The notes under the pieces are model-generated. The model saw only the letters and a list, made by a program, of their open reading frames with translations, ran no database searches and was not told the origin of the DNA. Below, one piece after another: positions 1 through 36,076 of a DNA stretch of 36,076 nucleotides. Location of the stretch: positions 1 through 36,076 of IMG/VR virus record IMGVR_UViG_3300042112_000429, one strand, 5' to 3'. The translations under genes were made by a program, and so were the position numbers. The DNA comes from a virus. Within the stretch, counting starts at the first letter, position 1. The number at the start of each line of letters is the position of its first letter.

Positions 1-185
1 GTGCCCCAACCCTGACGGTTGGCAACCTGTTCGATCAGCAATGCGTCACCCGGCTGCGGTTGGCAGCGACGGATCGCACCATGCAGACACATCTGCTGGT
101 CGTCACCCCAGTCGCCTTGCAGCCAGTGTTCACCGTTGGGGCCGAGCAGGTCTAGCAAATCGGCTTCGTTGATCTTGATGTTCAT
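1..185 (-). CDS. DUF6197-like repeat protein, copy 2, N-terminal part (cut by window end)
   Basis: The first 61 codons are nearly identical to residues 1-61 of the full copy at 35149-35856, with a few changes such as EAD for ETD. The pattern W-x-QG, CLHGAI and a following Trp/Asn region resembles the DUF6197 family of actinobacterial and phage proteins of unknown function. The ATG at 183-185 overlaps the SSB stop codon as TGATG, so translation is probably coupled to SSB. The gene runs off the window start. Its C-terminal part is most likely the fragment at 35873-36076, with the middle missing. Joining the two ends directly would break the frame (185 + 204 nt), so sequence is missing or the gene is broken. 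Confidence 0.7.
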   Translation of the reverse strand, partial: MNIKINEADLLDLLGPNGEHWLQGDWGDDQQMCLHGAIRRCQPQPGDALLIEQVANRQGWG

Positions 186-604
186 CAGAACGGCTCCTCG
201 TCCTCGACGGGGCGGCTGGCCTGGACTGTCCTGTTCTGTCCCCCATTGTCCCGTGTGATGCGGTCGACGGTGGCGGTGGCGAACTTCAGCGACGGGCCGA
301 AGTCGTCGACGATCACGTCGAACGCCTTGCGGTTGATGCCGTCCTTGTCGATGTACTCGCTCATCTCCGGTCGGCCGGTCAGCACGACCCTCATGCCCTT
401 GGCGCAGGAGGCGGCGATGTTCTCAGCGATCTGGCCGAACGCCTTGAAGTTGATGAACGACGTGGCTTCCTGCCATTCGCCGTTGGTCTGCCAGCGGCGG
501 TTGACAGCGATTCCGCCTGCCAGGCTGGCTCGTCCGCCTGCCGTGTAGCGGATGACCGGGTCGGTGGTCAGGTTGCCGGACATGGTGATGGTGGCGTCGC
601 TCAT
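185..604 (-). CDS. ssb: Single-stranded DNA-binding protein
   Basis: This 139-residue protein has the OB-fold pattern of bacterial and phage SSB: an N-terminal Ile-Thr-Met-Ser-Gly-Asn-Leu strand with DPVIRYT, a central strand set around residues 45-65 (ATSFINFKAFGQIAENIA) and VVLTGRPEMSEY. It ends in the acidic tip EDEEPF, equivalent to the DDDIPF tail by which SSB recruits partner enzymes. It should coat single-stranded DNA during phage replication and recombination. The frame stays open upstream through the pentamer array to 931, but homology starts at the ATG at 604. An AAGGAG lies 13 nt upstream, a rather long spacing. It sits at the end of the recombination genes, and its TGA overlaps the next start. 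Confidence 0.92.
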   Translation of the reverse strand: MSDATITMSGNLTTDPVIRYTAGGRASLAGGIAVNRRWQTNGEWQEATSFINFKAFGQIAENIAASCAKGMRVVLTGRPEMSEYIDKDGINRKAFDVIVDDFGPSLKFATATVDRITRDNGGQNRTVQASRPVEDEEPF

Positions 605-642: not shown

Positions 643-930
643 TTGCTGCCGTGCCGTGCCGCGCCCTGCCGAGCCCTGCCGGGCCCTGCCGAGCCATGCC
701 AGTGCTGCCGTGCCTTGCCGCGCCACGCCGAGCCCGGCCAAGCCCTGCCGCGCCCCTGCTGCCGTGCCTAACCGTGCCTGGCCGAGCCTGGCCTAGCCGA
801 GCCCTGCCTGGCCTAACCATTGCTGCCGTGCCGTGCCATGTCTTTGCTGCCGAGCCAAGCCTCGCCATGCCACGCCAAGCCTTGCCTCGCCAAGCCACGC
901 CACGCCGGTGCTGCCACGCCGGTGCTGCCA
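643..930. repeat. Degenerate GCCNN pentamer array (288 bp)
   Basis: About fifty GCC triplets occur almost exactly every 5 bp on the plus strand (GGCNN on the transcribed minus strand). The two spacer bases vary freely (gt, gc, ct, ga, at, ac, aa, tt, tc, tg). Blocks of pentamers are broken by a recurring TGCT element (agtgct, cctgct, attgct, ggtgct), which shifts the phase. With 605-642, which holds only the SSB leader, this fills the gap between SSB and the gene at 933-1379. The array has no in-frame stop in several frames, so long ORFs across it carry little weight. No promoter or tRNA is visible. The function is unknown. Confidence 0.85.
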
Positions 931-932
931 TG

Positions 933-1379
933 TCAGGCCGACTCGTCCAGTTCGTCGAACAGATTGTCGAGTTCGATCTGAACAGTGCGACGGATGTCGG
1001 CGACGCTCAACAGCACTGAATGCTTCTTGACCCACGATCTGATGGTTCGAGTGATCTCGTCCAACAGTTCGTCTTTCTTCTCACTGATGATGACGGTGGT
1101 GGGGCGGTAGACGCCGACACCGTCCGACGGGACGTGCGAAAACGCCCGAATGGTCACCGTCTTCATCGGCTCGGCGTGACTGGTCACAGCCACCGTGACC
1201 CGCCGGATGTAGTAGCGGGCCTGATCGAGCCGGTAGCGGTTCGATGCAACAGTGTCGTCCCACTCGAACTGGCTGTGGAGCGCCGTGTCGGGGTTCTTAG
1301 CGTACTCAAGAACCTCAACGGGAGTGAGTCTGCCCAGCTGTTCGTTGAGACGGAACAGTTCGTCCTGCCAGGTCGTCAT
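933..1379 (-). CDS. Conserved phage protein of the recombination module
   Basis: This 148-residue protein contains an HSQFEWDD motif followed by YRLDQARYYIRRV (about residues 36-60). I associate this combination with a widespread phage family found next to annealing proteins and SSB; its biochemical role is not known to me. The C-terminal third (SEKKDELLDEITRTIRSWVKKH, then a leucine-rich end) looks helical and may form a coiled coil. The ATG at 1379 overlaps the TGA of the upstream gene (TGATG); a GTG one codon earlier is possible. The gene ends 3 bp before the pentamer array. Confidence 0.75.
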   Translation of the reverse strand: MTTWQDELFRLNEQLGRLTPVEVLEYAKNPDTALHSQFEWDDTVASNRYRLDQARYYIRRVTVAVTSHAEPMKTVTIRAFSHVPSDGVGVYRPTTVIISEKKDELLDEITRTIRSWVKKHSVLLSVADIRRTVQIELDNLFDELDESA

Positions 1380-1987
1380 CACTCAACCGCCGCAAAGGTT
1401 CCGTACGTGCCGGTCGCGGACTGCTTCGATGCCGGTCGCCATTCACCCACGCCGCCGATGCCCGCTGCATCAACGAGTGCGACCAACGAGTTCAGGTCGA
1501 TCTGACCGTTGATGGTCTGGATGATCAGTTCTGCGCTCCACGGCCAATACTCAGCCCGGTAGCGCAGGTCGGCGACACCGGTCGCGTTGCGAACCGTGTC
1601 CTCACGCATCCGCACCGTTCCGTACTCGATGGGCACCAGCTGGTCGACGCCGTTGCCGATGACAGTGATGACCTGGCGAAGCTTGGTCATCTGTACGCCG
1701 TCGAACAGCCGACCTGCGTGAACGATTGCGGCCTTGAACCCTGTTGCGGGAAAGCCATCCCGTCCGTCGGGCAGGCGGTACTTTGACGCCTCGTACAACG
1801 TTTCCGGGTCCTTCGGCGCCTTCTTCATGCGCGCCGTGGTCTGCTGGGCAGCCAGCATCATTTCCTTGGCCTTCTCGGACCAGCGGTTGACGATCAGCGG
1901 AGCGGTGCCTTCGATCCTGATGGCGTAGTTGACGCGCTCAAGTCTCTGCAGACTGATAGTCGGTTGTGTTGCTTCTGTGGTTTTCAC
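1379..1987 (-). CDS. Conserved phage protein of the recombination module (fold uncertain)
   Basis: This 202-residue protein has a pattern that recurs in many temperate phages beside annealing proteins: IEGTAPLIVNRWSEKA near the N-terminus, GFPATGFKAAIVHAG in the middle, REDTVRNATGVADLRYR, and a GIGGVGEWRPA stretch at the C-terminus. No enzymatic motif is evident. The mix of a 'P-x-TGFKAA' helix start and a late glycine-rich GVGEWRP loop faintly recalls RAMP/Cas7-like folds, but that is speculation. The GTG at 1987 is preferred over a TTG at 1999 because GGAGG lies 5 nt before it. It follows the annealing-protein candidate and overlaps the next gene. Confidence 0.75.
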   Translation of the reverse strand: MKTTEATQPTISLQRLERVNYAIRIEGTAPLIVNRWSEKAKEMMLAAQQTTARMKKAPKDPETLYEASKYRLPDGRDGFPATGFKAAIVHAGRLFDGVQMTKLRQVITVIGNGVDQLVPIEYGTVRMREDTVRNATGVADLRYRAEYWPWSAELIIQTINGQIDLNSLVALVDAAGIGGVGEWRPASKQSATGTYGTFAAVE

Positions 1988-2016: not shown

Positions 2017-2643
2017 TTACGCAGCCACTTGGTTGTTGAGAACGTTGCGGACGAGGTCGGCGAAGTCGGGTGCCTCGAGGAACGAGGCGATGCCGATGCG
2101 GCGCCCGTGCTGTTCGGCCAGCGCACGCAGCTCGGCCTTCACGGCTTCGGGCGCGTTCTTGCAGTCGTCGAGCAGCTGGGCGGCGATGTCGTCGTCACGC
2201 TTGCGGCTGCTGCGCGCGTTGATAGTTGGGGCGACCGGCTCGGCATCGACGGCCTTCGACCACAACTTGGTGCCGATGCCAAACCGCATCGCACCGTTGC
2301 GGATCATGTCGCCGACCAGTTCCTTCTCCGGGTCCGACTTGCGGGCCTCGCAGGTGCCGACACACATGATCGACTTGCCGCAGACGATCAGCCGGCCCCA
2401 CATGACGAAGCGTGCGCCGTCCTTGACGATGACGGGTCCGCCGGTCGCCGGGTCGATCGCTGCCGGTTCCCACGTCCACAGCGGGTCGGCGTCGATCAGC
2501 GCCAGGGTGACTTCGGCGTGGCCCATGTAGAGCAGGTTCGCTCCGCCCTTGGGCAGGGTGGCGAGCGTTGACGGGTCGGGTTGGGCGTGTCGGGCTGGGA
2601 TGGCCCTCAGCCGGTCCTCAGCGGTTGCTGGGTTGTTTGCCAT
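2017..2643 (-). CDS. Candidate single-strand annealing protein (Rad52-superfamily-like)
   Basis: This 208-residue protein reads like phage annealing proteins of the Rad52/Sak group: LLYMGHAEVTLALIDADPLWTWEP, a strand with GARFVMWGRLIVCGKS, then CEARKSDPEKELVGDMIRNGAMRFGIGTKLW. The last element, an acidic E-x-x-GD-x-IRN-x-x-MRFGI helix, is the most telling. Such proteins pair complementary single strands during phage recombination. The C-terminal 70 residues look helical and more variable. An excellent GGAGG lies 6 nt before the ATG. It is followed by two conserved phage genes and SSB, a typical recombination set. A RecT-type assignment is possible; no exonuclease partner was seen. Confidence 0.6.
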   Translation of the reverse strand: MANNPATAEDRLRAIPARHAQPDPSTLATLPKGGANLLYMGHAEVTLALIDADPLWTWEPAAIDPATGGPVIVKDGARFVMWGRLIVCGKSIMCVGTCEARKSDPEKELVGDMIRNGAMRFGIGTKLWSKAVDAEPVAPTINARSSRKRDDDIAAQLLDDCKNAPEAVKAELRALAEQHGRRIGIASFLEAPDFADLVRNVLNNQVAA

Positions 2644-2782
2644 TGTTGTCCTCCAGGTTGAATGGCGTCGGGTAACGGGTGATGCCTCGGGCGATGTCTC
2701 GCTGGTCGAGGCGGCGGTGTGCGGCGAGCAGGATCTGCTCGAGGTCACGCAGATCGGCGGCGGTGGAACGGTTCAAAGGCAC
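2618..2782 (-). CDS. Small protein of unknown function (54 aa)
   Basis: This 54-residue frame starts at a GTG that overlaps the last ten bases of the upstream gene and ends 26 bp inside the annealing-protein gene. The first half (ADLRDLEQILLAAHRRLDQRD) should be one amphipathic helix; the end is polar and rich in Asn. It fills the only space between two well supported genes. No family is recognised. The Shine-Dalgarno match (GAGG directly next to the start) is poor, so the start or the gene itself is uncertain. Confidence 0.4.
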   Translation of the reverse strand: MPLNRSTAADLRDLEQILLAAHRRLDQRDIARGITRYPTPFNLEDNNGKQPSNR

Positions 2783-34665: not shown

Positions 34666-35156
34666 GCGATGTCCTTGACGCTGATGTAGCCGCTGCGGAT
34701 GAGGCGACGCTGACGTTCCGACGTGCCGCCCCAGATGCCGATCGTCTCGTTGTTGTTCACGGCGAACTGGAGGCACTGCAGACGTACGGTGCAGCCTCGG
34801 CAGACCTGCTTGGCGTACATGACGGTCGATCCGTCGCCTCGTTCGGGGAAGAACAGGTTGACGTCGACGTCCTTGCAGTTGGCGTCTGCCCGCCACGGCG
34901 CCGGGTCGAACAGGCGCACACGGCTTTCGAACTGGCCCATGATCATGCTGCGGCGTTGTTCGGGCGTGATCGCGGTCTGGTTACGTGCTCGAGGGTCGTG
35001 CTCGATGTCGTAGCCGGCCTTGCGTGCGGCGGTCAGCATCTTCCCGGCGGTCTTCAACGTGACGCCGAACGCCGCAACGATCGCCTGGTTGGCTTTCATG
35101 CCGTTGGCGTCGGCTGCGTTGGCGATCGCTGCGACGCGTGCGTTGCGGTCAGCCAC
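34662..35156 (-). CDS. WhiB-family iron-sulfur regulator with N-terminal HTH extension
   Basis: This 164-residue protein has a C-terminal WhiB domain: Cys94, then Cys119-x2-Cys122-x5-Cys128 binding a [4Fe-4S] cluster, and the GIWGG turn at 140-144 followed by basic residues. WhiB proteins are known only from Actinobacteria and their phages and bind the sigma factor. Here the domain follows about 85 extra residues with a helix-turn-helix-like part (NQAIVAAFGVTLKTAGKMLTAARKAGYDI), so it may bind DNA on its own. The GTG belongs to the start module at 35148. It may switch on later genes of the operon. Confidence 0.87.
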   Translation of the reverse strand: MADRNARVAAIANAADANGMKANQAIVAAFGVTLKTAGKMLTAARKAGYDIEHDPRARNQTAITPEQRRSMIMGQFESRVRLFDPAPWRADANCKDVDVNLFFPERGDGSTVMYAKQVCRGCTVRLQCLQFAVNNNETIGIWGGTSERQRRLIRSGYISVKDIA

Positions 35157-35167
35157 GGCGGGCCTCG
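35148..35167 (-). repeat. Start module copy 3
   Basis: The same 19-bp module ends the repeat protein (DEARRG) and starts WhiB (GTG, Met-Ala-Asp), with GAGG 6 nt before the GTG. Confidence 0.85.
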
Positions 35168-35856
35168 TCGTCGGGGTGGACGGGGCCGATGACGGTCGCC
35201 CACGGCTCGGTCAGCAGGTTGTAGTGCGCTTGGGTGAAACCGTGCTGGCCGATCAAGTCACGCACGGCCAACGCCCGAGCGGCGTCCCCAGCGGCGTTCC
35301 GAGCGGCGGCCCAATCGGCGTCCCGAGCGGCGTCCTGAGCGGCGTTCCAAGCGGCGTTCCAAGCGGCGTCCCGAGCGGCGTCCTCAGCGGCGACCCATGC
35401 GGCGACCCATGCGGCGTCCCGAGCGGCGTCCTGAGCGGCGTTCCAAGCGGCGACCCATGCGGCGACCCATGCGGCGTCCTGAGCGGCGTTCCAAGCGGCG
35501 TCGAGCCTTTGCACCTCATCGGCGGTCAACACGGCAACGCGCCGCACCAGCGCCACGATGTGTTCCCATTGCGGCCCGAACGTGTCTGCAAGATCGGCGT
35601 CGGTCACCTCAACGTGGGAGAGTCTTTCACGCACCTGCTGCCACGTGGTGGCCTCGTCGTCGTTCCAACTGGTGCCCCAGCCCTGACGGTTGGCAACCTG
35701 TTCGATCAGCAATGCGTCACCCGGCTGCGGTTGGCAGCGACGGATCGCACCATGCAGACACATCTGCTGGTCGTCACCCCAGTCGCCTTGCAGCCAGTAT
35801 TCGCCGTTGGGGCCGAGCAGGTTCAGCAGGTCCGTTTCGTTGATCTTGATGTTCAT
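35149..35856 (-). CDS. DUF6197-like protein with Ala-rich tetrapeptide repeats, copy 1
   Basis: This 235-residue protein has a DUF6197-like N-terminal part (about 1-90: [39 protein letters not shown]). A middle section is followed by 19 tetrapeptide units of type [16 protein letters not shown] (about 120-195). It ends [41 protein letters not shown]. The repeats would form a long helix with Trp on one face. AAGGAG is 6 nt before the ATG at 35856; a GTG at 35880 in the start module would add 8 residues. The function is unknown. Confidence 0.75.
35272..35499 (-). repeat. 12-bp tandem coding repeats (19 units)
   Basis: Nineteen units of GCCGCY plus six variable bases encode AAxx tetrapeptides. 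Neighbouring blocks are identical ([20 protein letters not shown] types recur), which points to recent slippage or unequal crossing-over. The other strand is also open across it, purely because of the repeat. Confidence 0.85.
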
Positions 35857-35871
35857 TCGGTTCTCCTTATC

Positions 35872-35891
35872 GTCAGCCACGGCGGGCCTCG
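35872..35891 (-). repeat. Start module copy 4
   Basis: The module ends the second paralogue (DEARRG) and offers a GTG upstream of copy 1, though the better start of copy 1 lies 24 nt further in. Confidence 0.8.
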
Positions 35892-36076
35892 TCGTCGGGG
35901 TGGACGGGGCCGATGACGGTCGCCCACGGCTCGGTCAGCAGGTTGTAGTGCGCTTGGGTGAAACCGTGCTGGCCGATCAAGTCACGCACGGCCAACGCCC
36001 GAGCGGCGGCCCAAGCGGCGTCCCGAGCGGCGGTCTGAGCGGCGGCCCCAGCGGCGGCCCCAGCGGCGGCCCAATC
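35873..36076 (-). CDS. DUF6197-like repeat protein, copy 2, C-terminal part (cut by window end)
   Basis: The last 67 codons of the second paralogue: a few AAAG/AARD/AAWA units, then the same C-terminal domain as copy 1 ([42 protein letters not shown]). The DNA of the C-terminal domain is identical to copy 1 for about 130 bp, so the duplication is recent. It runs off the window end inside the repeat. Its N-terminal half is most likely the fragment at 1-185. Confidence 0.75.
   Translation of the reverse strand, partial: DWAAAGAAAGAAAQTAARDAAWAAARALAVRDLIGQHGFTQAHYNLLTEPWATVIGPVHPDDEARRG

What the first reader, a model, noticed from the sequence alone, without database searches (positions are those of the whole stretch)
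643..930. 288-bp degenerate pentamer array (GGCNN)n between SSB and its upstream gene
GCC recurs every 5 bp about fifty times while the other two bases of each unit vary widely, and a TGCT element resets the phase. A plain slippage repeat would keep all five bases, so the strict GCC spacing with free spacers suggests selection for GG/CC every half helical turn, for an RNA fold, or for binding by a protein in register. On the transcribed strand it is a series of GG pairs that could form two-tier quadruplexes. It lies inside the recombination module, just before SSB, so it may be a recombination or replication signal or a translation-control leader for SSB.
Basis: partly seen in the sequence, partly recalled or inferred. 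Interest (0 to 1): 0.78.

Follow-up and report, generated by a model that had tools for sequence, protein, structure and literature searches.

The report
Phage VIPR guide-RNA array
The odd 5-base repeat is most likely the guide-RNA array of a VIPR system, a very recently described phage-encoded relative of CRISPR in which the two free bases of each 5-base unit together spell out the DNA target, so the array's 'fixed three, free two' pattern is a targeting code and not a recombination or SSB signal.

Summary
At 643-930 the minus (sense) strand carries (GGY NN)n: 41 GGC pairs lie exactly 5 nt apart, against 2.6 (maximum 8) in dinucleotide shuffles. The frame is reset repeatedly by GGCAGCA ('TGCT' on the plus strand).

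Two genes upstream lies a 202-aa protein (1379-1987, minus; phrog_4652). A profile of 70 relatives matches the solved 'SUSP1 Vipr protein' (E=8.7e-45), and its AlphaFold model (pLDDT 93) matches only Cas7-type CRISPR RAMPs among the 50 best PDB hits. The gene between (933-1379) is a Vipr partner: 36 of 99 Vipr loci, 0 of 111 others.

VIPR (PMC13142463, preprint, 2026) uses guide RNAs of alternating GGY/NN; the NN bases pair with DNA, skipping one base. Of 120 IMG/VR loci pulled only by the repeat, 84 encode Vipr, against 3 of 77 from a reversed-pattern control.

I add a grammar: across 92 loci the phase resets are mostly 4 mod 5 (247 of 319), constant within a locus and typically 8-13 units apart, so they look like guide boundaries. 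The window then holds four full guides of 10-12 NN.

SSB adjacency looks incidental. No target was found. Verdict: new member of a just-published kind.

The parts
643..930 (-). vrRNA (guide) array: GGY/NN pentamers in modules separated by GGCAGCA
   Evidence: shared by Vipr loci
849..908 (-). guide module 1, NN = CC GT GT TT GA AA TT GT AT GA TT TC (12)
   Evidence: parse between separators; guide role inferred
825..844 (-). short or decayed module 2, NN = AA AT AC AC (first GGY reads GAC)
   Evidence: inferred remnant
761..820 (-). guide module 3, NN = AT TA CA AG TC TA CA TC CA AC TA AC (12)
   Evidence: guide role inferred
707..756 (-). guide module 4, NN = GG GC AG TT CG TC GT GC AA AC (10)
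   Evidence: guide role inferred
648..702 (-). guide module 5, NN = CT AT TC AG CC AG TC AG GC AC AC (11)
   Evidence: guide role inferred
644..929 (-). seven GGCAGCA separators (644-650, 703-709, 757-763, 821-827, 845-851, 909-915, 923-929), each shifting the pentamer phase by 4 mod 5
933..1379 (-). vap: Vipr-accessory protein, 148 aa, phrog_15946, no enzyme fold recognised; start overlaps the vipr stop
1379..1987 (-). vipr: 202-aa RAMP (Cas7-like) protein, phrog_4652, GTG start after GGAGG
185..604 (-). SSB gene downstream of the array (own RBS AAGGAG 618-623); neighbour, not part of the system
2017..2748 (-). single-strand annealing protein (phrog_3290) upstream of vipr; neighbour, not part of the system

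Best explanation
The array is transcribed from the minus strand as part of the vipr-vap operon and yields several VIPR guide RNAs (vrRNAs). Copies of the Vipr RAMP protein line up along the RNA, one per pentamer, each holding the fixed GGY; the two free bases of each unit pair with double-stranded DNA, one target base being skipped between pairs, so 10-12 units specify a gapped target of about 30-36 bp. Binding most likely represses transcription of a rival phage, prophage or satellite in the same actinobacterial host, helped by the Vap protein. The GGCAGCA elements mark boundaries between successive guides. Shown here: the array, its grammar, the Vipr homology and RAMP fold, the vap association, and NN-biased variation in relatives. 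Inferred from the VIPR paper (PMC13142463): transcription, RNA-protein binding, the one-base-skip pairing and the anti-rival role. Inferred here alone: one Vipr copy per pentamer, and that GGCAGCA is the guide boundary.
For: Two genes upstream is a protein (1379-1987) in phrog_4652 (E=3.7e-32). A profile of 70 relatives hits PDB 36pp 'SUSP1 Vipr protein' at E=8.7e-45. Its model (pLDDT 93.3) returns only Csm, Cmr and type VII CRISPR RAMPs in the 50 best PDB matches. The reverse direction holds: 7 of 7 fetched Cheoctovirus mycobacteriophages chosen by Vipr similarity alone carry the array, and of 9 Vipr-selected IMG/VR loci 5 have GGY arrays and 2 GG-only arrays, one being cut off by the contig end. 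GGC sits on the sense strand between co-directional genes in 97 arrays against 5 antisense. Phase resets are 4 mod 5 in 247 of 319 cases, mostly 8-13 units apart, and fixed in sequence per locus. Between related phages, substitutions fall in NN and hardly in GGY (Saal versus Donkeykong: NN 17/94, GGY 0/139, tail 0/64). Vap relatives: 36/99 Vipr loci, 0/111 others. The published vrRNA definition (9-16 GGY/NN units) matches.
Against: No target was found. Exact gapped searches with three guides gave nothing in IMG/VR. A fourth gave 5 hits, all in 24-46% GC contigs. Module 5 gave 30 genome hits, none extending at the tenth NN. Module 3 gave 0 matches in 395 genomes with up to 3 mismatches. A local skip-rule test showed no excess. 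No conserved 3' tail like that of the published SUSP1 guides was recognised at the window array, although Cheoctovirus arrays end in a constant tail. The direct single-sequence match of the window protein to SUSP1 Vipr is weak (E=0.17); the link rests on the profile and the fold. Alignment of repeats favours GGY-on-GGY pairing, which inflates the NN/GGY contrast.
Confidence: 0.92

Rival explanations
1. The array is an autoregulatory mRNA element: Vipr binds its own polycistronic message at GGY repeats and controls translation or stability of downstream genes such as SSB, and the NN bases are simply unconstrained.
For: The array lies inside an operon on the sense strand, just before a gene with its own RBS; 97 arrays lie sense and 5 antisense between co-directional genes; a RAMP protein is encoded next to it.
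Against: The downstream gene differs between loci. Arrays are split into modules of guide-like length by fixed separators, and modules are gained or lost between sister phages. Published VIPR arrays act as guides (PMC13142463).
Confidence: 0.05
2. Recombination, replication or SSB-loading signal of the phage recombination module.
For: In this window the array sits in an operon between an annealing protein and SSB.
Against: SSB like the window's in 3 of 99 and the annealing protein in 1 of 99 Vipr loci (the homologue search starts from single sequences, so these are lower bounds); neighbours elsewhere include methyltransferases, ParB-like proteins, portal proteins and excisionase; strict strand bias with transcription.
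Confidence: 0.01
3. A degenerate coding repeat: an N-terminal extension of SSB (ORF 185-931) or a small repetitive protein.
For: The frame is open from 931 into SSB; Gordonia phage UmaThurman gp40 is annotated as a protein over such an array.
Against: Only TAG can be a stop in (GGCNN)n, so an open frame is expected; SSB has its own start and RBS; resets of 4 mod 5 change the reading frame.
Confidence: 0.01
4. Simple slippage or composition artefact, or an assembly artefact.
For: Pentamer tandem arrays can slip; the reversed control pattern also occurs in 82 stretches.
Against: The control matches are mostly single; the real arrays are long, multi-match, occur at 39-76% GC and co-occur with Vipr; the same array was assembled in a second contig.
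Confidence: 0.01

Closest known systems
VIPR (Viral Interference Programmable Repeat), Escherichia phage SUSP1 and Pseudomonas fulva prophage systems, PMC13142463
   Same: Small RAMP protein plus vap gene and intergenic RNA of alternating GGY/NN, 9-16 units per guide, in a phage genome.
   Different: The SUSP1 clade has separate ~100-nt guides, each with a structured 3' tail (GGY runs split by long constant stretches in the relative Alf5). The window has concatenated guides with a 7-nt separator and no recognised tail. The preprint mentions 'staggered arrays with overlapping vrRNAs' among its seven types; its supplement could not be read, so the type is not assigned.
Cheoctovirus mycobacteriophages (Saal gp51-52, Donkeykong, James and others)
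   Same: Vipr 54.5% identical to the window's; a small gene right behind it; GGY/NN array in modules of about 8-12 units.
   Different: Array upstream of vipr rather than downstream of vap; separator is the 4-nt unit GGCA; array ends in a constant tail; genes annotated only as hypothetical proteins.
Class 1 CRISPR-Cas (Cas7/Csm3 backbone)
   Same: Predicted Cas7-type RAMP fold; RAMPs oligomerise along a guide RNA with a fixed nucleotide step.
   Different: No CRISPR repeats or spacers and no other cas genes seen here; the code is gapped within each 5-nt unit.
TRAP binding sites (GAG/UAG repeats with 2-nt spacers), from memory
   Same: A fixed triplet repeated every 5 nt in RNA, read by protein subunits.
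   Different: TRAP sites are few and their spacers carry no information; TRAP itself was not tested here, and the protein found here has a RAMP fold instead.

Membership tests
VIPR | Vipr protein: RAMP homologue with a single RRM-type core | tested here: met
   Profile hit to SUSP1 Vipr (36pp) E=8.7e-45; AlphaFold model matches Cas7-type RAMPs
VIPR | Glycine-rich loop conserved | tested here: met
   Segment AGIGGVGEWRP: G179 invariant; G176, G181 and R184 at least 90% over 70 relatives
VIPR | Thumb domain that interrupts pairing | not tested
   No complex was modelled
VIPR | vrRNA of alternating GGY/NN, 9-16 units per guide | tested here: met
   Four modules of 12, 12, 10 and 11 NN between separators, plus one short remnant
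VIPR | Array in the intergenic region beside vipr/vap, in a phage genome | tested here: met
   virus record, terminase and portal genes
VIPR | vap accessory gene | tested here: met
   933-1379 relatives in 36/99 Vipr loci and 0/111 others; which of vap1-6 was not determined
VIPR | Invariable structured 3' tail after the repeats | tested here: inconclusive
   No Rfam hit, weak fold; constant tail seen in Cheoctovirus relatives but not identified here
VIPR | vrRNA expressed and bound by Vipr | not testable with these tools
   Needs small-RNA sequencing and pull-down
VIPR | NN bases match a DNA target with a one-base skip | tested here: inconclusive
   No convincing target in IMG/VR, GTDB genomes or 395 genomes of the class of an Aeromicrobium; no self target
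CRISPR-Cas class 1 | CRISPR repeat-spacer array and multi-gene cas operon | tested here: not met
   Array has 5-nt units, no CRISPR repeats; no cas genes among the window proteins scanned
SSB leader or recombination signal | Association with SSB or annealing genes across relatives | tested here: not met
   3/99 and 1/99 Vipr loci

The most novel reading that the evidence does not exclude
The phase-reset elements are a guide-boundary code: a locus-specific constant separator, 4 or 9 nt long but always 4 mod 5, delimits concatenated guides that lack individual tails, and whole modules are gained, lost or swapped between sister phages at these boundaries. This would be a distinct array architecture with its own processing or register-setting rule and a hint of how phages renew guides.
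Probability: 0.45. Interest if true: 0.72.

Novelty: new member of a known kind. Interest (0 to 1): 0.6.

Why it matters
VIPR was described only in April 2026 and is proposed as the ancestor of class 1 CRISPR effectors. This window adds an actinobacteriophage member and shows that the degenerate arrays are widespread, sense-strand-biased and largely diagnostic for Vipr, so they can be found by pattern alone. It also points to cultured Mycobacterium smegmatis phages (Cheoctovirus, for example Saal) that carry a related system and can be handled in any phage laboratory. The separator grammar gives a direct way to split long arrays into guides and hence to predict targets.

Tried and rejected
G-quadruplex or RNA-fold explanation: fold z-score only -2.3, no Rfam family. 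Coding repeat: rejected because stops are nearly impossible in the pattern and resets change frame. SSB or recombination signal: rejected by neighbour counts. Reversed-pattern control used to exclude composition. Target hunting: modules 3, 4 and 5 gave no exact hit in IMG/VR. Module 1 gave 5 hits in AT-rich phages; three of them put the skip base at the codon third position, but none fits the host's GC. Module 5 gave 30 genome hits, mostly common peptides or related Micrococcaceae, none extending at unit 10. Decoding 327 guide runs against 1.8 Mb of fetched loci showed no excess for a one-base skip over other skips or shuffles once the module-1 hits selected by search were set aside (an earlier run was confounded by simple repeats). 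Cheoctovirus modules had no target in the fetched loci. The vap fold search gave no confident match, only weak winged-helix-like ones; the apparent TAL-repeat hits have no stretch passing on its own and were discarded. A search of genome contigs with the window Vipr found none.

Full report
Observation. The window is an IMG/VR virus record whose terminase is closest to those of actinobacteriophages, while the portal gives only distant matches in many hosts. On the minus strand, between the gene at 933-1379 and SSB (185-604), 288 bp read GGY NN GGY NN and so on. 41 GGC pairs are exactly 5 nt apart against a shuffle mean of 2.6 and maximum of 8, and nothing else in the window exceeds 2. The same stretch occurs without a difference in a second contig from another IMG metagenome record, so it is real.

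The repeat is a recurrent kind of element. The reversed pattern gave 82 stretches, nearly all a single match. In the repeat loci GGC lies on the sense strand between co-directional genes in 97 arrays and on the antisense strand in 5. The gene just upstream belongs to phrog_4652, of unknown function, in 32 of 80 cases. The window gene at 1379-1987 is in the same family. An iterated profile search finds this family in 84 of 120 repeat loci and in 3 of 77 control loci, and those three also have GGY arrays.

What the protein is. A profile from 70 relatives matches one solved sequence strongly: PDB 36pp, 'SUSP1 Vipr protein', E=8.7e-45. The single window sequence matches it only weakly (E=0.17). 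AlphaFold2 gives a confident model (mean pLDDT 93.3), and the 50 best Foldseek matches in the PDB are Cas7-type CRISPR RAMPs (Csm, Cmr, type VII). The paper behind the name (PMC13142463) describes VIPR: a phage RAMP protein, an accessory vap gene, and guide RNAs made of alternating GGY/NN, where NN pairs with double-stranded DNA with one base skipped between pairs. It reports transcriptional repression of competing phages and a programmable defence in E. coli.

The partner gene. Relatives of 933-1379 (phrog_15946) occur in 36 of 99 Vipr loci and in none of 111 other loci. Its model is confident (pLDDT 94) but has no confident PDB match, only weak winged-helix ones. It is therefore most likely a vap gene, probably DNA-binding rather than enzymatic (inference).

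Grammar of the array. Over 160 arrays in 92 Vipr loci, gaps between GGY that are not multiples of 5 are 4 mod 5 in 247 of 319 cases. The distance between such resets peaks at 8-13 units. The separator is largely constant within a locus and differs between loci: GGCA in most, GGCT in L231, GGCGTTCAN in L029, GGCACCGCA in L052, GGCATCGCA in L140, GGCAGCANN in the window. In the window it yields modules of 12, 12, 10 and 11 NN plus a short remnant, inside the published 9-16 units per guide. My reading is that resets are guide boundaries. The preprint names 'staggered arrays with overlapping vrRNAs', but its supplement was not readable here, so I cannot say whether this rule is already described.

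Evolution in cultured relatives. Cheoctovirus mycobacteriophages carry a Vipr 54.5% identical to the window's. All seven fetched have a GGY/NN array upstream of vipr, modules split by GGCA, and a constant tail. Between Saal and Donkeykong the aligned array differs at 17 of 94 NN positions, 0 of 139 GGY positions and 0 of 64 flanking or tail positions; ByChance lacks a 54-59-nt block, about one module, that Saal and James have. Alignment in register inflates this contrast, but the module loss does not depend on it.

Why not the other readings. SSB like the window's is near only 3 of 99 Vipr loci and the annealing protein near 1 of 99, so the recombination-module setting looks incidental. The fold is only mildly better than shuffles and no RNA family matches. 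The open frame into SSB is expected because only TAG can stop (GGCNN)n.

What is missing. No target could be named. Exact gapped searches of IMG/VR and of GTDB genomes, a mismatch-tolerant search of 395 genomes, and a search of all fetched loci found nothing convincing. The guides do not match the phage's own genome above shuffles. Expression, binding and repression are untested here. The filing as VIPR rests on protein homology, fold, vap association, guide format and locus layout; the function is inferred from the published systems.

Noticed in passing
Mycobacterium phage Saal gp51-gp52 (L267:2580-4049) and other Cheoctovirus phages (L268-L272, L274): Cultured M. smegmatis phages carry an unannotated Vipr, a small neighbour gene and a GGY/NN array ending in a constant tail (GGCAGGAATGGCGGGGCTTGGCTGGGCAACCAGCC); a ready laboratory system.
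   Followed up: partly
L221:4925-5248 (Gordonia phage UmaThurman gp40): A VIPR array is annotated as a protein-coding gene; ORFs over such arrays translate as W/R/G/A-rich peptides and are probably common false genes.
   Followed up: partly
window 35149-35880 (-), 35997-36072 and 1-182: A gene with a degenerate 12-bp repeat (19 copies) coding for DAAW/NAAQ-type 4-residue repeats; its N-terminus is nearly the same as that of the gene cut at window position 1, so both ends of the contig hold copies of one gene family and may mark a tandem duplication or the genome junction.
   Followed up: partly
L222:3930-4100 (Gordonia phage Trine): Beside a GGC array, a tRNA-3'-end-like sequence (GGGGTTCGACTCCCCGGGGGAGCACGCT) occurs in two slightly different copies flanking the array.
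   Followed up: no
L084 between sub-arrays: Six GGY arrays are separated by a recurring constant stretch (GGGAGCAGCAGCATCCGGCGYAAAGGGATGGAC), perhaps a tail or promoter unit of this Vipr locus.
   Followed up: no
L228 and L229 downstream of Vipr: Vipr loci with arrays that keep GG every 5 nt but not GGY, suggesting a variant consensus.
   Followed up: no
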